This document shows positions 5,840-52,928 of a DNA stretch of 57,291 bases, piece after piece; positions within the stretch are counted from its first letter, which is position 1; every line of letters begins with the position of its first letter. The DNA is from Myxococcaceae bacterium (lineage in GTDB: Bacteria; Myxococcota; Myxococcia; Myxococcales; Myxococcaceae): the NCBI GenBank assembly GCA_019694595.1, contig JAIBBQ010000018.1, forward strand, positions 1 through 57,291, in the 5' to 3' direction. The translations under genes and the position numbers were made by a program. The notes under the pieces are model-generated. The model made no database searches and was not told the origin of the DNA. It worked only from the letters and a program-made list of their open reading frames with translations.

Positions 5840-8800
5840 CTACCCGATGCCGCCGCAGACGTTGGCGATGCCGCCGCCGCCGCACGTCTTGCCCTGCGGG
5901 CAGACGCCGCAGTCGAGCGTGTTGCCGCAGCCGTCGGCGAGCGGACCGCAGTCGGCCCCCGCCGCCGCACAGGTGCGCGGCGTGCAGTTCGGCTTGCCGC
6001 ACTTGCCCGGCGTGCCGCCACCGCCACACGTCTCCGGCGCGGTGCACGCGCCGCAGGGGATCAGGTTGCCGCAGCCGTCACCCGCGGGACCGCAGGAGAT
6101 GCCCTGGTCCGCGCAGGTCAGCGGCGTGCAGGTCAGGGCGCCACACTGCCCCGGGCCCTGCGCCCCGCAGATCTGCCCCATCGGGCACTTGCCGCAGTCG
6201 ATGGTGGCGCCGCACCCGTCACCCTGCAGGCCGCAGTTGAAGCCCTGCATGGTGCAGCTCTTGGGCGTGCACACCCCGCCGCCGCCGCACACGCCGGGCT
6301 GACCGCCGCCGCCGCAGGTCTGCGGCAGAGTGCACGGCCCGCAGTCCTGCGAGCCGCCACAGCCGTCGGTCTGCTGGCCGCAGTTGAAGCCGAGCTGCGT
6401 GCAGGTCGACTTGACGCAGGTCGCGCCGCCGCACACGCCCGGCACGCCGCCGCCGCCGCACGTCTGGCCAGGCACCGTGCAGGTGCCGCAGGGAATCAGG
6501 TTGCCGCAGCCGTCGCTCTGCTGGCCGCAGTTGTAGCCCTGCTGCAGACAGGTGCGGCCCACGCAGGTGCCACCGCCGCAGACGCCCGGCACGCCACCGC
6601 CGCCGCACGTCTGGGTGCCCTGGCACATGCCGCAGTCGAGGGTGCCGCCGCAGCCGTTGCCCTGCGCGCCGCAGTTGAAGCCCTGCTGGGTGCAGGTCTT
6701 GGGCGTGCACGGCACGCCGCACACGTTGGGAATGCCGCCGCCGCCGCAGGTCTGGCCAGGCACCATGCACATGCCGCAGTCCACCGTGCCGCCGCAGCCG
6801 TCGGAGATCATCCCGCAGTTGACGTCGAGCTGCGCGCAGGTCCGCTTGGTGCAGCTCTGCGGCGGAGGCACGTCGGGCTGGATGCACGAGGCGAGGTCGA
6901 ACAGCATGTACTCGAACACCTTCTCCTGCGGCGTCATCGGGCCCACCGAGCACTGGTTCGGCCAGGCCGACGCGCTCGCGTTCGCCGCGTTGATGACGTG
7001 GAAGTCCGAGAACAGCACGCGGCCGCACTGGTCGGCCGCCGCCGAGGTGGTCGGGGTGTTGAAGGTGTACTCGAGCGGAATCGAGCCGCCGCACTGGCCC
7101 GCCACGCCGCCGCCGCCGCACGACTGGGCGCCGGTGCAGGTGCCGCAGTTCAGCGTGCCGCCGCAGCCGTTGGGGAAGACGCCGCAGGCGAAGCCCAGGC
7201 TGGCGCAGGTCTTGGGAACGCAGGTGGACCCGCTGCCGCAGACGCCCGGCGTGCCGCCGCCGCCGCACGTGTTGCCACCGTTGCAGTTGTTGCCGCAGTT
7301 CATCGTGCCGCCGCAGCCGTCAGGCACGCCCTGACCGCAGCTGTAGCCCATCGCCGCGCAGGTCGCCTTCTGGCAGGTCCCGGTGTTGCCGAAGACCCAG
7401 CGCTGCGACGGCGCCACCACCCCGTCCATGTCGTGGCGCACCGTGTTCACGCGAATGCGGGGCACCGCGGGCGTCGAGCTCGCCGCCTGCGCGTTCACCA
7501 GCTGCACCCACTGCGCGAAGGTCTGGCCCTTGCCGAAGCTGATGTCGATGTACCCGTCCTGGTTGGGCGGGTTCGCCTGCGACGCGTTCCAGTTGGCCGT
7601 CGCCGGGAACGTCAGGTTGCAGGTGTTGCCCGGCGCCGTGCAGTTGACCGCGGAGCCGTTGGGGCTGGTCGCCGTCTGGAACAGCCACACGTACGCGTAG
7701 TGGCTGGCGAAGATGCGGCCACCCGCGCTCGCGTAGGCCTCCATGTTGCGCCGGCGGTCGATCGACTTGAGCTGCTCGCTGCCCACGCAGTCGAGCACCA
7801 CCATGTCGTACTTCTTCAGCTCGTTCAGGTTGTCGAACAGCGTGGCCGCCGCGGGCGCGGTCGCCCCGCCGCCGCTGTAGGTGGCACCGTTGTCCACGTA
7901 GAAGCGCACCCGGCCGCCGGCATCGGGCGCCGAGTACTGGTCGGCCGCGATGCCGATCTTCGGCAGCACGCACTCGATGGTGTCCACGTTGCCCGTCACC
8001 ACCGCCATCAGCGGGATGTTGTCGTTCGGGTGCTGCTCGGCCTGCTTGCGCGGCAGGCGCGTCTGCTCCGCGGTGAGCGCGGTGGTGGTGCAGCACGAAG
8101 GGTTGCTCACCGTGATCTGCCGCCGCCACTTGCCGAGCTGGAACACCACCGGCACGTCGACCCCCATGCCGCACGGCACGTTGTCGAGCACGAAGCCGCC
8201 GTCGATGTCCGAGTACGTCGAGACCAGCGGGCTGCCGCTCACGCCGTCGAGGCACTTGTCACACGTCACCCCGCCGCCGTCGCGCGTCAGCGGCAGCACG
8301 GTGCCGTTCGGCACGTAGACCAGCGCGTTGGGAATCGGGTCCGGCTGGCCGTAGCCCGCGTCGGCCTGGGTCGGCGCCAGCACCTTGCCGGTGAACTTGG
8401 TGCTCATGCCCGCCGCGCAGACCGCCTGCTTGAGGCACAGGTTGGTGCACAGCGACCCGCCGTCGGGCCGGATGCTGCCGCACACGTTGGGAATGCCCGC
8501 GCCGCCGCAGATGTCCGGCATGGTGCACTGGCCGCAGTCCGGGGTCAGCCCGCCGCAGCCGTCGCCCACCGGGCCGCAGTTCGCGCCCTGCTGGAGGCAG
8601 GTCTTCGGCACGCAGGGCGGAGGACCGCCGCACACGCTCGAGAGCCCACCGCCGCCGCAGGTGCCGCCGTCGGTGCAGGTCCCGCAGTTGAGGATGCCGC
8701 CGCAGCCGTCGCCCACCGAGCCGCAGTTGGCCCCCGCCTGGGCGCAGGTGCGCTTCACGCAGTTCACCGTGCCGCCGCACTGGTTCGGCACGCCGCCAGC

Positions 8801-9748
8801 GCCGCAGGCCTGCACGCCCTGGCAGATGCCGCAGTTGGGCGTCAGCCCACCGCAGCCGTTGCCCACCACGCCGCAGCCCGCGTCGAGCTCGGCGCACGTC
8901 TTGGGCACGCAGGTGGTGCCGCCGCCGCACTGGTTGGCGAACCCGGCGCCGCCGCACACCTGAGGCGCCACGCACGGCGAGCCGCAGTTGAGGATGTTGC
9001 CGCACCCGTCACCCATCGCGCCGCAGGTGGCGCCCGCGTCGGCGCACGTCCGCGCGACGCAGGTGTTGCCGCCGCCGCACTTGTACGGCACGCCGCCGCC
9101 GCCGCAGAGCGAGCCGCCGTCGCAGCCGCCGCACGAGAGCACCCCGCCGCAGCCGTCGCCGATGACGCCGCAGCTCGCCCCGGCGATGGCACAGCTGGTC
9201 GGCACGCACATGCCGCCGTCGACGTTCTGCCCCGTCAGGCCGCAGCGGCTCGAGATGCCGCCGCCGCCGCACGTCTCGGGCAGCGCGCAGGCGCCGCAGT
9301 TGAGGAGGCCACCACAGCGGTCCGACTGGGGGCCGCACTCCGCGCCGAGCTGGGCGCAGGTCACGGGGATGCAGCCCGCATCGCCGCCGCACCGGCTGGG
9401 CACGCCGCCGCCGCCGCACGTCTCCGGCGTGGTGCAGGTGCCGCAGTCGAGGATGTTCCCGCAGCCGTCGCCGATCTGGCCGCAGTTGGCGTTCGCCTTG
9501 GCGCACGTCACCAGGCCGCAGCCGCCGTCGACCAGCATCATGCCGCCGCCGCCGCCCGAGCCGCTGCCGCCGCCGCTCGCCTTGCCGCCGCCCGACGCGG
9601 TGCCGCCGCCGACGCCCGAGCTGGAGCCGCCGCTGCCACCGCTGCCGTCGCCGCCGCCGCTCGAGCCGGTGCCGTTGGTGCCGCTGCAAGAACAGCCCGC
9701 GGCGGTGAGCGCGCAGACCAAGAGGATGCTGTGCAGAACGATCCGCAT
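5840..9748 (-). CDS. giant Cys/Gly-rich repeat lipoprotein with an interrupted globular core
   Basis: The protein has 1302 residues. A lipoprotein signal (LVCALTAAGC, Cys about 19) is followed by a Gly/Ser linker to about residue 70. Then come 16 copies of a module of about 48 residues with the pattern C-x3-TC-x(2,3)-G-x2-CG-x3-DGCG-x3-CG-C-x5-CGGGG-x-P-x2-CG, in three blocks: seven at about 76-428, two at about 790-888 and seven at about 963-1302. Between the blocks lies a globular part. Residues 430-545 resemble a carboxypeptidase-regulatory beta domain ('IPNALVYVPNG', 'DGGFVLDNVPCG'). Residues 560-790 contain 'YDMVVLDCVG' and 'GGRIFASHY', which suggest a class I glutamine-amidotransferase-like fold (inference). 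The protein is probably outer-membrane anchored with many disulfides. AAGAGAG before the ATG is a plausible ribosome site. Confidence 0.8.
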   Translation of the reverse strand: MRIVLHSILLVCALTAAGCSCSGTNGTGSSGGGDGSGGSGGSSSGVGGGTASGGGKASGGGSGSGGGGGMMLVDGGCGLVTCAKANANCGQIGDGCGNILDCGTCTTPETCGGGGVPSRCGGDAGCIPVTCAQLGAECGPQSDRCGGLLNCGACALPETCGGGGISSRCGLTGQNVDGGMCVPTSCAIAGASCGVIGDGCGGVLSCGGCDGGSLCGGGGVPYKCGGGNTCVARTCADAGATCGAMGDGCGNILNCGSPCVAPQVCGGAGFANQCGGGTTCVPKTCAELDAGCGVVGNGCGGLTPNCGICQGVQACGAGGVPNQCGGTVNCVKRTCAQAGANCGSVGDGCGGILNCGTCTDGGTCGGGGLSSVCGGPPPCVPKTCLQQGANCGPVGDGCGGLTPDCGQCTMPDICGGAGIPNVCGSIRPDGGSLCTNLCLKQAVCAAGMSTKFTGKVLAPTQADAGYGQPDPIPNALVYVPNGTVLPLTRDGGGVTCDKCLDGVSGSPLVSTYSDIDGGFVLDNVPCGMGVDVPVVFQLGKWRRQITVSNPSCCTTTALTAEQTRLPRKQAEQHPNDNIPLMAVVTGNVDTIECVLPKIGIAADQYSAPDAGGRVRFYVDNGATYSGGGATAPAAATLFDNLNELKKYDMVVLDCVGSEQLKSIDRRRNMEAYASAGGRIFASHYAYVWLFQTATSPNGSAVNCTAPGNTCNLTFPATANWNASQANPPNQDGYIDISFGKGQTFAQWVQLVNAQAASSTPAVPRIRVNTVRHDMDGVVAPSQRWVFGNTGTCQKATCAAMGYSCGQGVPDGCGGTMNCGNNCNGGNTCGGGGTPGVCGSGSTCVPKTCASLGFACGVFPNGCGGTLNCGTCTGAQSCGGGGVAGQCGGSIPLEYTFNTPTTSAAADQCGRVLFSDFHVINAANASASAWPNQCSVGPMTPQEKVFEYMLFDLASCIQPDVPPPQSCTKRTCAQLDVNCGMISDGCGGTVDCGMCMVPGQTCGGGGIPNVCGVPCTPKTCTQQGFNCGAQGNGCGGTLDCGMCQGTQTCGGGGVPGVCGGGTCVGRTCLQQGYNCGQQSDGCGNLIPCGTCTVPGQTCGGGGVPGVCGGATCVKSTCTQLGFNCGQQTDGCGGSQDCGPCTLPQTCGGGGQPGVCGGGGVCTPKSCTMQGFNCGLQGDGCGATIDCGKCPMGQICGAQGPGQCGALTCTPLTCADQGISCGPAGDGCGNLIPCGACTAPETCGGGGTPGKCGKPNCTPRTCAAAGADCGPLADGCGNTLDCGVCPQGKTCGGGGIANVCGGIG

Positions 9749-24305: not shown

Positions 24306-27300
24306 TCACTGGCAGGTCAGCACGCTGGTGAAGGTCCCTACCGGGGTGGATCCGTTCGCCGAGTAGTACACCCGACCCACCGACGCCCACGCCGTGAAGG
24401 CCTGCTTGTCGCCCCCCCGGCAGTCCGGATCAGCGCCGCACGTCGCGTTGGTGGCCGCCAGCTCCACCGTCGAGCTCGCCGGCTGCTTCACCCCCAGCAG
24501 GTCCGTCTGCCGCGTCATCACCTGGCGCCGGAACCCACTGGAATCATTGACGTAACGAATGGCCGAGAGCCACAGGCCGGTGGCCGTGGCCGACCCGCGC
24601 GGCCGCAGGATCGAGCTCACCCCGTTCTGGTTCGCGTACGCCAGCCAGGCGTACTTCCAGCCCGGGTCCGTCGACACCCAGAAGTCGAGGTCCGCATCGG
24701 ACGACGAAGAGTCGCGGGTGACGTAGGCGACCAGGGTCTGATCCGCGCTCGCGTTCCGGAAGAAGGTCACGTCGGGCTCGTTGAGCGTCCGCGGAGAGGT
24801 CACCGAGTACACCGCCGTCTCCGCGCTCTTGCCCGTGCCGTCCTCGTTCAGGCTGAAGGTGGTGAGCGCGGTGGCCGAGGTCAGCCAGGCGAGCTGCACC
24901 TTGCGCAGGGTCGAGGTGGCCGCGGGGCACGTCTGCGTCGCCACCCAGTCCTGGTGGCTCGAGTCCGCGCCCAGGCCCGCAGGCTGGCTCGCGGTGCTCC
25001 CGGAGATGACCACCGGCGTCGGCACCGCACCGCACCCCGGGCCCTTGATGCTCCAGGTGCCGGCGGTGGCGTCGAAGCACGGCTCGACCCGCGTCAGCTT
25101 GTAGCCCACCGACGCCTCGCGCCAGATGACCGTCACTCGCTTGCCGTTGCCCCGCACCAGCCGCAGCGAGTCGAGGGCGTTGCCGGTGTTGAACTGGCTC
25201 CACAGCCGGGTCCGGTACGCGCCGGTCGCGCCATCGTGGAAGTAGAGATCGATCTCGACCGGCGTACCGCTTGAGTTCCGGTAGATGCCGGCCAGCACAA
25301 AGCCATCGCCTGCCTGGGCCAAGTCCACGTCCGTGTAGTTGAGGCTGGAGGCTGCGGCCACCGGGTTCCCCACCGGCACGCCCGCGGTGCTCAGCGCCTG
25401 CACGTAGAAGCCTCCGTCGGCGCCCGCCATCGCCAGCGCGCCACCGGCGAGCCCATCACTGCCGCCGTTGGTGGTGCCGCCGGCGCAGCCGTTGGCCGAG
25501 TAATAGAACGGCTCGACCTCCACGTCGGTCCACGCCGGCGCGGTGTTGAGGTTCACCGTGGAGGTGAGCGTCGGCTCGTCGACCACCCCGTCGCAGTCGT
25601 TGTCCAGCCCGTCGCAGGCCGCCGCGGTGGGGCTCTTCGGGCTCACGCTGCACACCGTGGAGAGCTGATCCGCCGCGCACACGTAGGTGCCGGTGTTGGC
25701 GCACACCCCGAGGCCGACCGTGCAGGCCTGGCCGCGGTTGGTGAAGGTCTCGTCGGTGCTCCCGTTGCAGTCGTCGTCGAGGAGGTTGCACTTCTCGGCC
25801 GACGGCGCGGTGTTGCGCACGCACGCGAGGCTCCCGCTCTGGCAGGTCTGCGTCCCCGCCGCGCACACGCCCGCCTGGCCGGTGTTGCACGCGCCGCCGC
25901 CGCCGGGGTTGTTCTCGTCGGTCTGGCCGTTGCAGTTGTCGTCGACGCCGTTGCAGCTCTCGGCGAGTCCGGGGTGCACCGCCGCCACGGAGTCGTTGCA
26001 GTCGCCGTTGTTGGTCACCCGCCCGGTCACCGGGCCGCAGCTCACCACCGCCGCGCCCCCCGAGGCGCCGTACCCGTCGCCGTCGCCGTCGACGTAGTAG
26101 CTCTGCGTCGGCAGGCCTTCGTCGGCCGCGCCGCTGCAGTTGTCGTCGACGCCGTTGCACACCTCGGTTGCGCCCGGCTTGATGCTGGCGATCCCGTCGT
26201 TGCAGTCGGTGTTGTTGGTCACCTTGCCGCTCACCGGCGCGCACGAGGACTGGGCGCTCGAGGCGCTCGACCCGAACCCGTCGCTGTCCAGGTCCGGGTA
26301 GTAGTTCAGGAAGGTGAGCCCTTCGTCGACCTGCCCGCTGCAGTTGTCGTCGGTGCCGTTGCAGACCTCGGACGCGCTCGGCTTCACCGCAGAGCTGCTG
26401 TCGTTGCAGTCGCCGTTGTTGGTCACCCGGCCCGTCACCGGTGCGCAGGAGACGATGGCCGTGGTGCCCGAGGCGCCGTAGCCGTCGCCGTCGTTGTCCA
26501 CGTAGTAGCTCTGGGTGACGGTGCCGTTGTCCACCAGGCCGTCGCAGTTGTCGTCGACCGAGTTGCAGGCCTCGGGCGCGCCGGGGTGCACCGTCGCCAC
26601 GGAGTCGTTGCAGTCGGTGGCGCTGGTCACCTTGCCGCTCACCGGCGCGCAGGACACCTGGGCGGTCGCGCCGCTGGCGCCGTAGCCGTCCATGTCCACG
26701 TCCGGGTAGTAGCTCGCGGTCGCCAGACCTTCGTCGACCATGCCGTTGCAGTTGTCGTCGCGGCTGTTGCAGGTCTCGGTGGCGCCCGGCTTCACCGCGA
26801 AGAGCGCGTCGTCGCAGTCGAGGTTGTTGGTCACCCGGCCGCTCACCGGCGCGCAGGCGCTCTGCGCCGCCGCCGACTTGTTGCCGTAGCCGTCGCCGTC
26901 GCTGTCCGGGTAGTAGTTCTGGAAGGTGAGCCCCTCGTCCGTCTGGGCGTTGCAGTTGTCGTCGATGCCGTTGCAGAGCTCCGTCGCGCCCGGCTTCACC
27001 AGCGGGTTGGCGTCGTCGCAGTCGTTGTTGCTGGTCACCCGGCCGGCCACCGGCGAGCAGCTGTTCTGCACCGTCCCCGCGCCCACCCCGTCGCCGTCGC
27101 CGTCGACGTAGTACCCGACGAAGGTCAGCCCGTCGTCGACCGCGCCGTTGCAGTTGTCGTCGACCGCGTTGCACACCTCGGGCGCGCCCGGCTTCACCTG
27201 GGCGTTCATGTCGTTGCAGTCGCCGTTGTTGGTGACCTTGCCGGCCACCGCCGCGCACGCCGTCTGCGCGGTGGACCCCGTGGCGCCGAAGCCGTCGCCG

Positions 27301-28223
27301 TCCATGTCCGGGTAGTAGTTCCTGAACTGCAGGCCTTCGTCGATCTGCCCGTTGCAGTCGTCGTCGAGCCCGTTGCACGACTCCGGCGCGCCCGGCTTCA
27401 CCGTGGGGCTGGAGTCGTTGCAGTCGAGGTTGTTGGTCACCTTGCCCGCGACCGTCGAGCAGCTGTTCTCGGGGGCCGCGCCGGCGGAGCCGAAGCCGTC
27501 GCCGTCCACGTCGGGGTAGTAGTCTTGGTAGGTGATGCCGTTGTCGATCTGCCCGTCGCAGTTGTCGTCGACCTTGTTGCAGAGCTCCGCGGCGCCCGGC
27601 TTCACCGTCGGGTTGGCGTCGTTGCAGTCGAGCTTGTTGGGCACCCGGCCCATCACCTTCGGCTGGCAGCTCGAGACCGCGGTGCCGCTCGCGTCGCCCG
27701 AGCCGTCGCCGTCCACGTCGACGTAGAAGTCCTGGAAGGTGAGGCCGTTGTCGACCTCGCCGTTGCAGTCGTCGTCGACCGCGTTGCACACCTCGGCGGC
27801 GCCGGGCTTCACCGCGGCGTCGCCGTCGTTGCAGTCGCCGGTCTCGAGCACGCTGCCCTTGGGGGCCGGCCCGCACGCCTCGCCGGTCACCTTGTCGCTG
27901 CCGACGCCGTCGCCGTCGCCGTCCTCGTAGTACTTCTGCGTCGGCAACCCTTCGTCGGCCTTGCCGTCGCAGTTCTGGTCCACTCCGTCGCAGGTCTCCT
28001 GCGCGCCGGGGTGCACGGTGACGTCGGCGTCGTTGCAGTCGACCGTCGGCTCGCTGGCACAGTCGCCGGTGCCGGGCACGCCGTCGCCGTCGGCGTCGAC
28101 GCAGGTCTCCATCATGACCGGGGGCATGCCGGAGTCCGGCACGGGCTTGGAGCCGCCGCTGCCGCAGCCGGCGAGCAGCAGCGCCCACAGGGCGGAGACG
28201 ACCACTGCGATGCGGGACATCAT
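24306..28223 (-). CDS. giant MopE-like lipoprotein with eleven Asp/Cys metal-binding units
   Basis: The protein has 1305 residues. Signal peptide with lipobox LLLAGC (Cys20). Eleven units follow to about residue 768. Each full unit is 68 residues: 'YYPDVDGDGFG' (EF-hand-like Asp loop), a Cys segment, 'DCND', a 'VKPGA' turn, then 'CNGVDDNCNGQVDEG'. This is the MopE-like metal-binding motif (PF11617); Ca2+ is the likeliest ligand. A Cys-rich linker with similar C-N-D motifs (about 770-880) leads to a C-terminal domain (about 890-1305) of beta-strand character with 'GGFYVQALSTAG' and 'SVGRVYYSANG', possibly a propeller (inference). Start: paired ATGs at 28223 and 28220 after GGCAGG. Probably outer-membrane anchored. 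Confidence 0.85.
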   Translation of the reverse strand: MMSRIAVVVSALWALLLAGCGSGGSKPVPDSGMPPVMMETCVDADGDGVPGTGDCASEPTVDCNDADVTVHPGAQETCDGVDQNCDGKADEGLPTQKYYEDGDGDGVGSDKVTGEACGPAPKGSVLETGDCNDGDAAVKPGAAEVCNAVDDDCNGEVDNGLTFQDFYVDVDGDGSGDASGTAVSSCQPKVMGRVPNKLDCNDANPTVKPGAAELCNKVDDNCDGQIDNGITYQDYYPDVDGDGFGSAGAAPENSCSTVAGKVTNNLDCNDSSPTVKPGAPESCNGLDDDCNGQIDEGLQFRNYYPDMDGDGFGATGSTAQTACAAVAGKVTNNGDCNDMNAQVKPGAPEVCNAVDDNCNGAVDDGLTFVGYYVDGDGDGVGAGTVQNSCSPVAGRVTSNNDCDDANPLVKPGATELCNGIDDNCNAQTDEGLTFQNYYPDSDGDGYGNKSAAAQSACAPVSGRVTNNLDCDDALFAVKPGATETCNSRDDNCNGMVDEGLATASYYPDVDMDGYGASGATAQVSCAPVSGKVTSATDCNDSVATVHPGAPEACNSVDDNCDGLVDNGTVTQSYYVDNDGDGYGASGTTAIVSCAPVTGRVTNNGDCNDSSSAVKPSASEVCNGTDDNCSGQVDEGLTFLNYYPDLDSDGFGSSASSAQSSCAPVSGKVTNNTDCNDGIASIKPGATEVCNGVDDNCSGAADEGLPTQSYYVDGDGDGYGASGGAAVVSCGPVTGRVTNNGDCNDSVAAVHPGLAESCNGVDDNCNGQTDENNPGGGGACNTGQAGVCAAGTQTCQSGSLACVRNTAPSAEKCNLLDDDCNGSTDETFTNRGQACTVGLGVCANTGTYVCAADQLSTVCSVSPKSPTAAACDGLDNDCDGVVDEPTLTSTVNLNTAPAWTDVEVEPFYYSANGCAGGTTNGGSDGLAGGALAMAGADGGFYVQALSTAGVPVGNPVAAASSLNYTDVDLAQAGDGFVLAGIYRNSSGTPVEIDLYFHDGATGAYRTRLWSQFNTGNALDSLRLVRGNGKRVTVIWREASVGYKLTRVEPCFDATAGTWSIKGPGCGAVPTPVVISGSTASQPAGLGADSSHQDWVATQTCPAATSTLRKVQLAWLTSATALTTFSLNEDGTGKSAETAVYSVTSPRTLNEPDVTFFRNASADQTLVAYVTRDSSSSDADLDFWVSTDPGWKYAWLAYANQNGVSSILRPRGSATATGLWLSAIRYVNDSSGFRRQVMTRQTDLLGVKQPASSTVELAATNATCGADPDCRGGDKQAFTAWASVGRVYYSANGSTPVGTFTSVLTCQ

Positions 28224-31311: not shown

Positions 31312-34119
<2,808 letters not shown>

Positions 34120-34152
34120 CGCCGCCCCCGCCTCCCCGGTCCATTTCTCACC

Positions 34153-34530
34153 GGTACCCACGCACCGGGTCGCCCCACGCACCGGGTCGACCCACGCACC
34201 CGGTCGACCCACGCACCCGGTCGACCCACGCACCCGGTCGACCCACGCACCCGGTCGACCCACGCACCGGGTCGACCCACGCACCCGGTCGACCCACGCA
34301 CCGGGTCGACCCACGCACCCGGTCGACCCACGCACCGGGTCGACCCACGCACCCGGTCGACCCACGCACCCGGTCGACCCACGCACCCGGTCGACCCACG
34401 CACCGGGTCGACCCACGCACCGGGTCGACCCACGCACCCGGTCGACCCACGCGCCCGGTCGACCCACGCACCCGGTCGACCCACGCACCCGGTCGACCCA
34501 CGCACCCGGTCGACCCACGCACCCGGTACC
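34153..34530. repeat. 22-copy, 17-bp tandem array with GGTCGACC core and GGTACC caps
   Basis: Twenty-two units of the form GGTCGACCCACGCACCS (S = C or G) follow each other without spacers. All 21 junctions but the first (GGTCGCCC) contain GGTCGACC, giving 20 SalI-type GTCGAC palindromes. The first and last units are closed by GGTACC (34153-34158 and 34525-34530), which equals GGTCGACC without its central CG. Unit-to-unit variation is almost only C/G at the last position, plus one A-to-G change in unit 18. It fills the space between the convergent 3' ends of secA and the GntR gene. Confidence 0.97.
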
Positions 34531-34552
34531 AAGGGATTTGGGAGCGGGCCGC

Positions 34553-35320
34553 TCAGTGGTGGTCGGTGCCTCCGTTCGTCACCAGACCACTCGGCAGCTC
34601 AACCCAGCCGAGCGCGTTGAGTTCGGCCACACACGCCTCCTCGCGCCTGAGGATCGCGGCCTCGATGAGGTCTCCGGCCTGGCGGGCCTCACGCGCCTCG
34701 AGCCGATGGAAGAGCTCACCGTACGTTTCCACCGGAATGAGGGTCGCGGCGCCCGGAAGGACCAGCTGAGGCACGAACAGTGACCAGAGCGAGTTGAGGA
34801 GCACGGTGTACACGACGTTTCCGGCCGAGGCCGCAATGACCCGGAGCACGTTCTGCTCGGACTCCCCGACGGCGCTCACCATCACGGTGCCGCCACCCAT
34901 GGCCTCGAGCGCAGAGATGGCAGCCTGGAGCCACGTCAGGTGGTCCGTCATGCGGTGGAGCGCAGCGCGTTCCACCATGTCGCGCAGCGCCGGCTTGAGG
35001 AACCCCAGGAGCTGGGCGATGAGCGCGTACTTCCGTGCCGGCTCCTTGGCCATCGCGAGCAGGTCCACGAAGATCTCGAAGTCGGCCGAGCGCAGCAGGT
35101 CGACCACGATGTACCCCACCCCTCGGTCCCGCCTGACGAGGCCCTTGGCCTCGAGCCGGCCGACCGCAGAGGCGACCGTCTTCGGGTGACAGCCCGTTTC
35201 CTTCGCGAGCTCGTACACCGACGGCAGCGCGTCGTCGGGGCGCAACTCGCCGCTCAGGATCAACCGCTGCAGCCGCTTCTCGATCACCCCTGCAATCGTC
35301 TCGACCTCGATCCGCTCCAT
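34553..35320 (-). CDS. GntR-family transcriptional regulator (FadR-like)
   Basis: The protein has 255 residues. An N-terminal winged helix-turn-helix of GntR type (about 8-75, 'LRPDDALPSVYELAKETGCHPKTVASAVGRLEAKGLVRRDRG'-like order, typical of the family) is followed by a helical effector-binding domain (about 80-240) that looks like the FCD group. The ligand is unknown. It starts 2 bp after the stop of the ComM-like gene, so it is probably co-transcribed with it. Its stop lies 22 bp from the end of the 17-bp array. Target operators cannot be predicted from this window. Confidence 0.85.
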   Translation of the reverse strand: MERIEVETIAGVIEKRLQRLILSGELRPDDALPSVYELAKETGCHPKTVASAVGRLEAKGLVRRDRGVGYIVVDLLRSADFEIFVDLLAMAKEPARKYALIAQLLGFLKPALRDMVERAALHRMTDHLTWLQAAISALEAMGGGTVMVSAVGESEQNVLRVIAASAGNVVYTVLLNSLWSLFVPQLVLPGAATLIPVETYGELFHRLEAREARQAGDLIEAAILRREEACVAELNALGWVELPSGLVTNGGTDHH

Positions 35321-37196: not shown

Positions 37197-37652
37197 TCAG
37201 GGCTGCGACGGTATCGGCGGCTCCAGCCGCTCGGTCATCATGCCCAGCGCCTCGGCACCGGCGAGACGGGCCCCGTCGAGCGCCGTCACCAGGCGGCCGT
37301 AGTTGGTCTTCTCCTCGGCGAGAAAGAAGACGAGCCGCTTGCCCCTGGGGCGTGCGTCCAGCACCTGGCGAAGCCGGGCGACGTAGTCGCCTTCGCCGAG
37401 CACCTCGGCGTTGAGCCGCAGGGCGCCGCTCGCGTCGACCGAGACGACGAGCTGGTCGGCCGGCAGCTCCGCGGGGTCGACGAGCTGCTCGGCGTCGGGC
37501 ACGCGCACCACCAGGTCCTTCTCGAGCAGCGGCGTCACCACCATGAAGATGATGAGCAGCACCAGCACGACGTCGACCAGCGGGGTGACGTTGATCTCCG
37601 AGTTCGGCCGCGACTGCGGCTTCACCGTGAAGCGGCGCAGGGCGCGGCGCAT
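37197..37652 (-). CDS. exbD: ExbD/TolR-type energy-transducing protein (second copy)
   Basis: The protein has 151 residues. A single N-terminal membrane helix (VVLVLLIIFMVVTPLLEKD) carries the ExbD-type Asp in 'LVDVV', needed for proton-driven motion. A periplasmic domain follows (about 45-151). It overlaps the other ExbD gene by 1 nt (TGATG). Sequence differs clearly from the first copy outside the helix, so it is a paralog, not a recent duplicate. Confidence 0.88.
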   Translation of the reverse strand: MRRALRRFTVKPQSRPNSEINVTPLVDVVLVLLIIFMVVTPLLEKDLVVRVPDAEQLVDPAELPADQLVVSVDASGALRLNAEVLGEGDYVARLRQVLDARPRGKRLVFFLAEEKTNYGRLVTALDGARLAGAEALGMMTERLEPPIPSQP

Positions 37653-38068
37653 CAGCGCTTGATCTCCTCGACGCCCAGCGCGACGCCGCGCGCTCCGGCT
37701 CGACGCGCCACGCGCAGCACCCGGCGAACGTCCTGGAAGTCGAGCGCGGTGTCTCCCTTGAGCAGCACCTTGCGCCCGGGCTGGCGGGTGAGCTCGGCGC
37801 GGAGCGCCACCTCGAGCGCGTCCTCGCCGAGCGCCTCGCTCTCGAGGAACAGCTCGCGCCGCGCGGTGACGGAGATGACCAGCGGGTCCCGCGCGGCGTC
37901 CTCCTGCGCGGTGGCGGTCGCCCTGGGGAGCTGCACGTCCTTGCCCCGCTGGAGCATCGGGGTGACGACCATGAAGATGATGAGCAGCACCAGCACCACG
38001 TCGACCAGCGGAGTGACGTTGATCTCGCTCTTGAGGCCACCGCCGCCGGTGCCGCCGGTCATCGCCAT
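37652..38068 (-). CDS. exbD: ExbD/TolR-type energy-transducing protein (first copy)
   Basis: The protein has 138 residues with the ExbD plan: 'SEINVTPLVDVVLVLLIIFMV' at the membrane, with the conserved Asp, then a periplasmic domain with 'VLLKGDTALDFQDVRRVL'. A Gly-rich N-terminus (MTGGTGGGG) precedes it. It lies 9 bp after the ExbB gene. ExbB and ExbD form the proton-driven motor that powers TonB. Confidence 0.9.
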   Translation of the reverse strand: MAMTGGTGGGGLKSEINVTPLVDVVLVLLIIFMVVTPMLQRGKDVQLPRATATAQEDAARDPLVISVTARRELFLESEALGEDALEVALRAELTRQPGRKVLLKGDTALDFQDVRRVLRVARRAGARGVALGVEEIKR

Positions 38069-51522: not shown

Positions 51523-52821
51523 ATGGCGACCAAGGTGAAGAAGGCGCGGCGCGCGGTGGTGGTCGGCGGCATGCGGACGCCATTCGTGAAGGCGTTCGCC
51601 GAGTACCTGACGCTGGACACCATCGCGCTGGGCACGCTCGCCTCCCAGGGGCTGCTCGAGAAGCTCAATCTCTCGAGGCAGCACATCCAGTCCGTCGTCT
51701 GGGGCGGCGTGGTGCTGCCGGGCCTCGCGCCCAACCTGGCGCGGGAAATTGCGCTGGACCTCAAGCTCCCGGCGAGCGCGGAGGGCATGACGGCGACCCG
51801 GGCCTGCGCGTCGGGCCTGCAGGCGGTGACCCTGGCCGCCGCGGCCATCGAGCGGGGCGAGGCCGACGTGGTGCTGTGCGGCGGCTCGGACTCGACGTCG
51901 AACGCCGAGGTGAAGCTGCCGCAGAAGGTGGTGCACGCGCTGGCGCCGCTGGCGTTCGGCAAGGCGAGCCCGGGCGACGTGCTGGGGGTGCTCGCGCAGC
52001 TGATGCCGCTGTCGGAGATCCTCCCCAAGATGCCGCGCATCGCCGAGCGCACGACGGGCGAGGTGATGGGCGAAGCGGCCGAGAAGATGGCGGTGCGCAA
52101 CGAGATCTCCCGCCGCGCCCAGGACGAGCTGGCGCTCGCCTCGCACCACCGCGCGGCGGCGGCGATCTCCAGCGGCCGGTTCGACGACGAGGTCGTTCCG
52201 GTGCAGACGCCGGAAGGCAAGTGGGTGCACCGCGACCAGCTGGTGCGGGCGACGACCTCGCTGGAGAAGCTCGAAGCGCTCAAGCCGGTGTTCTCGAAGA
52301 CGGGAACGGTGACCGCCGGAAACGCGAGCCCGCTCACCGACGGGGCTGCGGCGGTGCTGCTGATGAGCGAAGAGGCGGCGAAGGCGCACGGATACACGCC
52401 CCTCGCGGCCTTCGCGTCGTGGGCGTACACGGGCGTCGACCCGAAGGATCAGGTGCTCCTGGGGCCTGCGCTGGCGATGCCGCTGGCCCTCGAGCGCGCG
52501 GGGCTGACGCTGGAGCAGATGGACCTGGTGGACATGCACGAGGCCTTCGCGGCGCAGGTGTTGAGCGTCCTCAAGGCCCTGGAGAGCCCCGGGTTCGCGA
52601 AGACGCGCCTCGGCCGCGACGCTCCGGTCGGCCGGGTGCCTCGCGAGAAGCTCAACGTGCACGGTGGGTCCATCGCCATCGGGCACCCGTTCGGGGCGAC
52701 CGGCGCGCGCATGGTGACCACCATGTCGAACGAGCTCCACCGCACCGGCAAGACCCATGCCCTGCTCGGCATCTGCGCCGCTGGAGGCCTCGGGGCGGCC
52801 GCCGTGCTCGAGCGGATCTGA
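51523..52821 (+). CDS. 3-ketoacyl-CoA thiolase / acetyl-CoA acetyltransferase, FadA2/FadI-like
   Basis: The protein has 432 residues. Active residues are intact: nucleophile Cys95 (TRACASG), His388 (AIGHPFGATG) and Cys418 (GICAAGGLG). It cleaves 3-ketoacyl-CoA or joins two acyl-CoA units. With the dehydrogenase, hydratase and reductase just upstream it completes a full four-step cycle, which can in principle run either way. Last gene of the operon; a capped 17-bp array begins 8 bp after its stop. Confidence 0.92.
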   Translation: MATKVKKARRAVVVGGMRTPFVKAFAEYLTLDTIALGTLASQGLLEKLNLSRQHIQSVVWGGVVLPGLAPNLAREIALDLKLPASAEGMTATRACASGLQAVTLAAAAIERGEADVVLCGGSDSTSNAEVKLPQKVVHALAPLAFGKASPGDVLGVLAQLMPLSEILPKMPRIAERTTGEVMGEAAEKMAVRNEISRRAQDELALASHHRAAAAISSGRFDDEVVPVQTPEGKWVHRDQLVRATTSLEKLEALKPVFSKTGTVTAGNASPLTDGAAAVLLMSEEAAKAHGYTPLAAFASWAYTGVDPKDQVLLGPALAMPLALERAGLTLEQMDLVDMHEAFAAQVLSVLKALESPGFAKTRLGRDAPVGRVPREKLNVHGGSIAIGHPFGATGARMVTTMSNELHRTGKTHALLGICAAGGLGAAAVLERI

Positions 52822-52825
52822 AAAC

Positions 52826-52928
52826 CGCCGGTACCGAGTGACCGGGTCGACCGAGTGACCGGGTCGACCGGGTGACCGGGTCGACTGAGTGACCGGGTCG
52901 ACCGGGTGACTGAGTACCGGCGCTTTTT
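52826..52928 (+). terminator. inverted repeat plus T-tract enclosing the second 17-bp array
   Basis: CGCCGGTAC (52826-52834) and GTACCGGCG (52914-52922) are perfectly complementary. CTTTTT follows at 52923-52928. The layout is that of an intrinsic terminator whose 79-nt loop is the repeat array. It lies 5 bp after the thiolase stop. Confidence 0.6.
52830..52920. repeat. 5-copy, 17-bp tandem array with GGTCGACC core and GGTACC cap
   Basis: The units read GGTCGACCGAGTGACCG with R and Y transitions at three positions. The first unit is shorter by CG (GGTACC at its start, 52830-52835), and the last ends in AGTACC. Period and core are the same as in the array at 34153-34530. The unit divides into an 8-mer (GACCGAGT) and a 9-mer (GACCGGGTC) that alternate. 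One unit variant matches the reverse complement of the first array's unit over 13 contiguous bases. Confidence 0.95.

What the first reader, a model, noticed from the sequence alone, without database searches (positions are those of the whole stretch)
34153..34530. A 22-copy 17-bp array with GGTACC caps fills the space between two convergent genes
Seen directly: 22 units of 17 bp, no spacers, GGTCGACC at 20 of 21 junctions, and both array ends replaced by GGTACC, which is the same core without its central CG. The caps suggest a defined element with ends, not a plain slippage repeat. Variation is limited mostly to one position (C or G), so the array is either young or kept uniform. I know no named myxobacterial repeat with this form. 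Possible roles (inference): protein-binding array, transcription barrier between convergent genes, recombination site.
Basis: partly seen in the sequence, partly recalled or inferred. Interest (0 to 1): 0.88.

Follow-up and report, generated by a model that had tools for sequence, protein, structure and literature searches.

The report
Capped palindrome arrays at gene ends
The 22-copy repeat is one of at least sixteen related repeat arrays scattered through this bacterium's genome, nearly all beginning and ending with the same four letters and mostly sitting just behind genes, so it is a real repeat family at gene ends, although what it does there is not yet shown.

Summary
In detail: 378 bp, 22 units, GGTCGACC at 20 of 21 internal junctions, GGTACC at both ends, filling 87% of the gap between secA and a convergent GntR-type gene. 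It is not a single-locus curiosity. The genome holds at least 16 such arrays; 26 of 29 resolvable ends carry GTAC (the palindrome without its CG), 24 of them in exact unit phase. Six arrays share a conserved ~65-nt tail outside one cap and four share a second tail, so these are dispersed modular elements, not separate slippage events. Of 11 testable arrays, 8 lie within 50 nt of a stop codon (null 23%, p 0.0007) and none between divergent genes (p 0.016). The array was not found in 143 relatives (few candidates scored in each), but the closest carries its own dispersed GGTSACC palindrome arrays, one also directly behind secA. The genome has no Y1 transposase, so it is not a typical REP/RAYT system. 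Best reading: a new BOX/BIME-like, GTAC-capped palindromic minisatellite at gene 3' ends, able to fold into a long rod and possibly serving as a transcript boundary. A tolerated, non-functional minisatellite is nearly as likely. Function is untested.

The parts
34153..34530 (.). 22-unit array: 15-bp ACC-N9-GGT units joined by CG (GGTCGACC junctions)
34153..34158 (.). left cap GGTACC
34525..34530 (.). right cap GGTACC
31312..34119 (+). secA (935 aa), stop 33 nt before the array
   Evidence: Pfam SecA domains
34553..35320 (-). GntR-family regulator, stop 22 nt after the array (convergent)
   Evidence: Pfam GntR
52830..52918 (.). second, short array of the family (GGTCGACC/GGGTGACC units, GTAC caps; outer ends CGCCGGTAC...GTACCGGCG followed by CTTTTT)
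51523..52821 (+). thiolase gene, stop 8 nt before the second array
   Evidence: Pfam thiolase

Best explanation
The array is one copy of a dispersed, modular, palindromic minisatellite family: GTAC cap, n copies of a 17-bp unit whose core GGTCGACC is its own reverse complement, GTAC cap, and in ten copies a conserved outer tail of one of two types (A or B). It sits just behind gene stop codons. Shown: the family, the caps, the tails, the gene-end location, and local duplication of units. Inferred: because the array begins within 100 nt of a stop in 10 of 11 testable copies, it would be read into the 3' end of the message (at secA from both sides), where the palindromes can pair across the array into a long rod; such a rod would act as a transcript boundary, blocking 3'-to-5' decay or helping polymerase to stop, as proposed for REP/BIME and BOX repeats. 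The spread between loci is inferred to be copying of array plus tail by recombination or by an unknown enzyme.
For: At least 16 arrays in the genome. GTAC at 26 of 29 resolvable ends: 22 at exactly 11 nt from the outermost GTCGAC, 2 at 28 and 45 nt (11 plus 1 or 2 units), 2 at 19 nt (11 plus an 8-bp half unit), 3 absent. A tail at 6 loci, 6 matches in the genome, each beside an array; B tail at 4; the end-motif pattern hit only the known arrays plus one extra copy whose GTAC lies 89 bp beyond that of the C97 array. Stop proximity with exact cap edges, 11 arrays with a called gene on both sides: 8 of 11 within 50 nt (null 23%, p 0.0007), 10 of 11 within 100 nt (null 36%, p 0.0003), median 33 nt (p 0.006), 0 divergent (p 0.016) (gene calls by my own caller). 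RNA fold of 34120-34552: z = -7.4 (+) and -8.4 (-); the second array is one rod, z = -5.2, with the GTAC caps in its basal stem. Closest relative G005 has 119 GGTSACCSGGTSACC sites against at most 1 in each of 38 other relatives; 5 of 8 clusters viewed begin within 100 nt of a called stop, one of them about 28 nt behind its secA. Unrelated bacteria: GGTCGACC arrays at 17-bp spacing lie within 117 nt of a called stop in 6 of 6 loci with gene calls, 4 convergent, 0 divergent.
Against: No hairpin with T-run at this array. The closest-range count is weak: 5 of 11 within 31 nt, p 0.022; an earlier count of 7 of 11 used rough array edges and is withdrawn. The low fold energies follow from any tandem palindrome and do not show selection. 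Core conservation over spacer is threshold-dependent: p = 0.0003, 0.02, 0.23 at 4, 5, 6 allowed mismatches. Core variants do not favour G-U-compatible changes on the transcribed strand (by eye: mixed). The gene-end location is also what weak selection against insertions elsewhere would give. No array behind the TruB-like gene of G005 (51% identical), although G000 has one behind its own. No expression data.
Confidence: 0.4

Rival explanations
1. Tolerated (neutral or selfish) minisatellite. Palindromic seeds with tails were copied to many loci, expanded by slippage, and survive only behind genes because promoters and coding sequence cannot take them. No function.
For: Array-specific variants and local duplications, 187-bp duplication, not found in 143 relatives (at most about 4 candidates scored in each), copy number 3 to 31 units without evident rule, core conservation not robust. 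The pneumococcal repeat paper gives the same argument for location downstream of genes (passages of PMC3049150).
Against: Caps at 26 of 29 ends regardless of length; the close relative has an unlike palindrome array at the same place behind secA; independent GGTCGACC arrays in unrelated bacteria also sit at gene ends, 4 of 6 convergent.
Confidence: 0.38
2. Double-stranded DNA site array: a protein (repressor-like, nucleoid protein or gyrase) binds the GGTCGACC palindromes every 17 bp and insulates convergent supercoils.
For: Self-complementary core at fixed spacing with variable spacer; related palindrome GGTSACC in the relative.
Against: Spacing of 17 bp is about 1.6 helical turns, so neighbours do not face the same side (general knowledge); only 3 of 11 arrays are between convergent genes; the GntR regulator beside this array has no counterpart among the 28 flanking proteins scanned at other loci.
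Confidence: 0.12
3. Ends of a mobile element: GTAC is the cleavage/joining site of an unknown recombinase that inserts the array into GT^AC targets; arrays are non-autonomous cargo.
For: GTAC at both ends in phase while the internal junctions are mostly GT-CG-AC; conserved tails; copies beside unrelated genes.
Against: No Y1 transposase in the genome (other transposase families not searched); none of 28 flanking proteins scanned matches a transposase in Pfam, though 9 of 28 match nothing; no empty-site comparison possible, since no genome of the same genus was among the relatives listed; the tails lie outside the caps.
Confidence: 0.08

Closest known systems
REP / BIME elements (E. coli, Pseudomonas and others)
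   Same: Dispersed palindromic repeats behind genes, mostly between unidirectional and convergent ORFs; proposed roles in termination, mRNA stabilization, supercoiling (passages of PMC3733652).
   Different: Most REPs described there have a GTAG or CGTC foot on a 20-40-bp palindrome and are often linked to RAYT transposases; here GTAC caps, 8-bp cores in head-to-tail 17-bp arrays, and no Y1 transposase.
BOX elements of Streptococcus pneumoniae
   Same: Modular dispersed repeat: boxA and boxC ends with a variable number of tandem boxB modules, predicted to fold as RNA (passages of PMC3049150).
   Different: BOX elements are 67-637 bp with terminal inverted repeats and target duplications shown earlier by others (same passages); here the ends are a 4-6-bp cap plus an optional tail on one side, and target duplication could not be tested.
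Intergenic minisatellites / VNTRs of bacteria
   Same: Head-to-tail units, local duplications, changes concentrated in a few unit positions.
   Different: Same unit, caps and tails at many loci of one genome; usual VNTRs are independent per locus (recalled).
GGTSACC palindrome arrays of relative G005 (found here, unnamed)
   Same: Tandem GGT(N)ACC palindromes, dispersed, several near stops, one behind secA.
   Different: 8-bp sub-units inside higher-order units of roughly 65-90 bp; no GTAC caps seen; similarity to the A tail not significant.

Membership tests
REP/BIME | GTAG or CGTC foot on a 20-40-bp palindrome (most REPs) | tested here: not met
   caps are GTAC, core is an 8-bp perfect palindrome
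REP/BIME | RAYT (Y1) transposase in the genome (common, not universal) | tested here: not met
   PF01797: 0 matches in the own genome; found in 5 of 14 control genomes
REP/BIME | Location between unidirectional and convergent genes | tested here: met
   3 convergent, 8 tandem, 0 divergent of 11
BOX-type modular repeat | End modules around variable tandem middle modules | tested here: met
   caps around 3-31 units, A or B tail in 10 of 16
BOX-type modular repeat | Terminal inverted repeats and target-site duplication | tested here: inconclusive
   GTAC is self-complementary but, by eye, flanks beyond it rarely pair; no empty sites available
BOX-type modular repeat | Sequence similarity to BOX modules | not tested
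   no BOX sequence was compared
CRISPR array | Unique spacers between repeats | tested here: not met
   spacers are near-identical
Intrinsic terminator | GC hairpin followed by a T-run | tested here: not met
   none within 34153-34530 (one weak site on - at 34107-34095, inside secA); the second array is followed by CTTTTT but was not scanned with that tool
Minisatellite | Tandem units with local duplication | tested here: met
Known Rfam RNA | Match to a curated family at its gathering score | tested here: not met
   0 matches in the window and 8 of the 14 own-genome loci fetched

The most novel reading that the evidence does not exclude
Head-to-tail palindrome arrays are a recurrent, independently evolved class of gene-end boundary element. 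In this lineage the palindrome's centre is the length switch: copies with CG in the middle (GT-CG-AC) are multiplied, copies without it (GT-AC) seal both ends in exact unit phase, so that the array can grow inside but keeps fixed ends that close the base of an RNA or cruciform rod. Unrelated bacteria with GGTCGACC arrays at 17-bp spacing between convergent stops, and the unlike palindrome array at the same place behind secA in a sister genus, would be convergent cases.
Probability: 0.17. Interest if true: 0.75.

Novelty: new variant of a known kind. Interest (0 to 1): 0.5.

Why it matters
If the arrays act at transcript ends they would be a readable, length-variable boundary element in a GC-rich lineage, and the neighbouring genus with an unlike palindrome array at the same gene end gives a natural comparison of whether position or sequence matters. 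Even if neutral, a capped and tailed minisatellite that spreads without a visible transposase is a puzzle about how small repeats copy themselves between loci.

Tried and rejected
Y1/RAYT transposase as the mover: absent from the own genome; other transposase families were not searched genome-wide. Rfam family: none in the 9 sources scanned. Phage or plasmid origin: the 25-bp two-core pattern has 0 exact matches in viral contigs; one Kitasatospora plasmid has a 73% match to 28% of the array, with a solute-binding-protein gene annotated under it; the phage record collection was not searched. Relatives with the same array: beyond the own genome 5 of 143 had weak matches (G002, G005, G006, G039, G111); viewed, none is a 17-bp array of this kind (G002's is a repeat at a contig end with a period near 15). 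Cap pattern in 59 relatives: 7 had one match each, viewed and not arrays; so was the own C361 match. Conserved RNA structure of the A tail: covariation term +0.45, 2 of 25 pairs with a two-sided change: no support. Similarity between the A tail and G005 units: best p 0.02 of 12 comparisons: not convincing. Single-copy dispersed forms: in the 20 sampled own contigs GGTSACC has 151 sites in called genes and 2 outside, so none seen in that sample; other forms of the motif were not split this way. Core-versus-spacer conservation: one search gave p 1.5e-8, but that set was anchored on exact cores and is biased; the symmetric recount is inconclusive. The first stop-distance count used array edges a few nt too wide; one search replaces it. 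A first attempt with the GntR protein in the family found only distant matches and was not used. Literature: the listings showed no title that describes this repeat; that covers open-licence PMC text only, and one search lists 20 of 584 papers.

Full report
Observation. The array at 34153-34530 is as described: 22 spacers of 9 bp, 21 junctions, 20 of them GGTCGACC and the first GGTCGCCC, GGTACC at both ends. It fills 378 of the 433 bases between the stop of secA (34119) and the stop of a convergent GntR-type regulator (34553).

The family. BLAST of the array against its own genome (7.28 Mb, 394 contigs, 99% complete) gives 19 matches, 40 of 53 candidates having been scored, which I read as 16 arrays on 14 contigs: C48, C58, C59, C97, C106, C132, C146, C155, C179, C259, C287 (two), C380, C387, C392 (two) (sequences). 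More degenerate arrays may have been missed. A C361 match from the cap pattern is a single isolated site.

Caps. Of 32 array ends three run off contigs. Of the remaining 29, 26 carry GTAC: 22 at exactly 11 nt from the outermost GTCGAC, two at 28 and 45 nt (11 plus one or two whole units, the core between being degenerate), and two at 19 nt (11 plus an 8-bp half unit; C48 right, C59 left). Three lack it (C146 right reads GTGC, C287a right, C380 left). So 24 of 29 ends are in exact unit phase. The cap is the palindrome without its CG.

Tails. Outside one cap, six arrays share a conserved stretch of about 65 nt (A: C48, C58, C59, C132, C146, C287b) and four share a shorter one (B: C97, C106, C259, C387). 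The A stretch, searched with the C59 copy, has six matches in the genome, each beside an array. The end-motif pattern with up to three mismatches hits only the known arrays and one more copy, whose GTAC lies 89 bp beyond that of the C97 array. Neighbouring genes are unrelated to each other (M20 and M23 peptidases, kinases, BKACE, thiolase, TruB, MutS-like, glyoxalase and others), so copies with array and tail have been spread between loci. How is unknown: no Y1 transposase is in the genome, and none of the 28 flanking proteins scanned matches a transposase in Pfam, though 9 of 28 match nothing.

Unit dynamics. I extracted 179 units. Adjacent units are identical more often than in shuffled order (89 against 63.7 +/- 4.2), and C132 holds a 187-bp (11-unit) block twice at 183 of 187 identity. 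Units within an array are 91% alike, between arrays 88%. Uniformity thus fits local duplication. Whether the core is more conserved than the spacer depends on how units are recognised and I leave it open.

Location. Gene calls are from my own simple codon-usage caller, not a published gene finder. For the 11 arrays with a called gene on both sides, 3 are convergent, 8 tandem, 0 divergent (p 0.016 for none). With exact cap edges, 5 of 11 lie within 31 nt of a stop (p 0.022), 8 of 11 within 50 nt (null 23%, p 0.0007), 10 of 11 within 100 nt (null 36%, p 0.0003); the median is 33 nt (p 0.006), against random placement in the intergenic space of the same loci. A first count with rougher edges gave 7 of 11 within 31 nt and is replaced by this one. 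Of the other five, C155 and C179 directly follow a stop, C58 and C387 have a stop at about 152 and 177 nt, and C287a has only a gene start on its resolved side.

Relatives. No genome of the same genus was among the relatives listed. The array matched none of 143 relatives as an array (four or fewer candidates scored in each listed genome; the five weak hits were viewed). In the 29 relative secA loci returned and viewed, only G005 (SecA 83% identical over the full length) has more than one GGT-ACC palindrome in the 350 nt after the stop (five, within the 176 nt that its contig holds; four others have one each). Four relatives (L143, L144, L145, L147) show by eye a CCCTCTCC / GGAGAGGG inverted repeat near the stop. 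G005 has 119 GGTSACCSGGTSACC sites; the own genome has 5, seven other relatives have one each and 31 have none. In the nine G005 loci fetched, eight clusters of four or more motifs were seen in seven of them (C25 and C43 gave none at that threshold); five of the eight begin within 100 nt of a called stop, one about 28 nt behind secA. That the clusters contain the motif is by construction; their position is not. A second shared-locus test, TruB, was negative.

Unrelated bacteria. The three-core pattern at 17-bp spacing in the one-genome-per-species collection (84,980 species) gave 7 stretches. In six with gene calls the array lies within 117 nt of a called stop: four convergent (L030, L031, L032, L036; in L036 it is 4 nt from both stops), two tandem (L033, L035), none divergent; L034 gave no gene calls. 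Gene calls there used the codon model of the own genome. Convergent gaps are 5 of 21 elsewhere in those loci, so 4 of 6 has p about 0.03. The spacers differ entirely, so these are probably independent arrays.

Folding. As RNA the region folds well below shuffles on both strands (z = -7.4 and -8.4). The second window array folds as one long hairpin closed by CGCCGGUAC/GUACCGGCG and followed by CUUUUU. Tandem palindromes would do this whatever their role.

What it is. It works like, and looks like, a REP/BIME or BOX type small repeat at gene ends, but it does not meet the REP definition (foot, size and transposase fail; and passages of PMC3733652) and resembles BOX in architecture only (passages of PMC3049150). 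I file it as a new variant of small dispersed palindromic repeats: a GTAC-capped palindromic minisatellite. The functional step, a boundary at transcript ends, is inferred and about as likely as no function at all.

Controls and limits. A 242,524-base sample of 20 own contigs had only 3 intergenic tandem repeats by TRF, none of this unit; the samples of G018 (259,529 bases) and G005 (156,841 bases) had 6 and 3 rows. Two of those control repeats, one in each of the two relatives, lie between divergent genes (L217, L245), so intergenic repeats in general are not barred from such gaps. The arrays are likely longer than short reads and three contigs end inside them, so copy numbers are provisional.

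Noticed in passing
L194 (G005 C625):58-149 and L188-L193: The nearest relative carries its own dispersed arrays of GGTGACC/GGTCACC palindromes in higher-order units of roughly 65-90 bp, several near gene stops, 119 pattern sites genome-wide.
   Followed up: partly
L143, L144, L145, L147, just behind the secA stop: Other relatives have a CCCTCTCC...GGAGAGGG inverted repeat within a few tens of bases of the secA stop, so different repeat families occupy this slot in different genera.
   Followed up: no
L036:4660-4718 and L030, L031, L032: Unrelated GGTCGACC arrays at 17-bp spacing sit between convergent genes in actinobacteria and a Nannocystineae assembly.
   Followed up: partly
L061 (C132), two blocks 187 bp apart starting near contig 7959 and 8146: An 11-unit block including degenerate units is duplicated at 183 of 187 identity.
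   Followed up: yes
L211:13270-13468: Another intergenic repeat of the own genome, period 92, 2.2 copies, 1 nt behind a called stop, with an inverted repeat GTGTCCGCG/CGCGGACAC in its unit.
   Followed up: no
window 25915-28041 and 5843-9505: Long degenerate repeats (204/408-bp and 147-bp periods) that recur within the window; the first lies in a called gene.
   Followed up: no
window 37521-37598 and 37949-38026: A 78-bp stretch repeated at 91% identity in two adjacent small genes whose translations share SEINVTPLVDVVLVLLIIFMVVTP near their starts.
   Followed up: no
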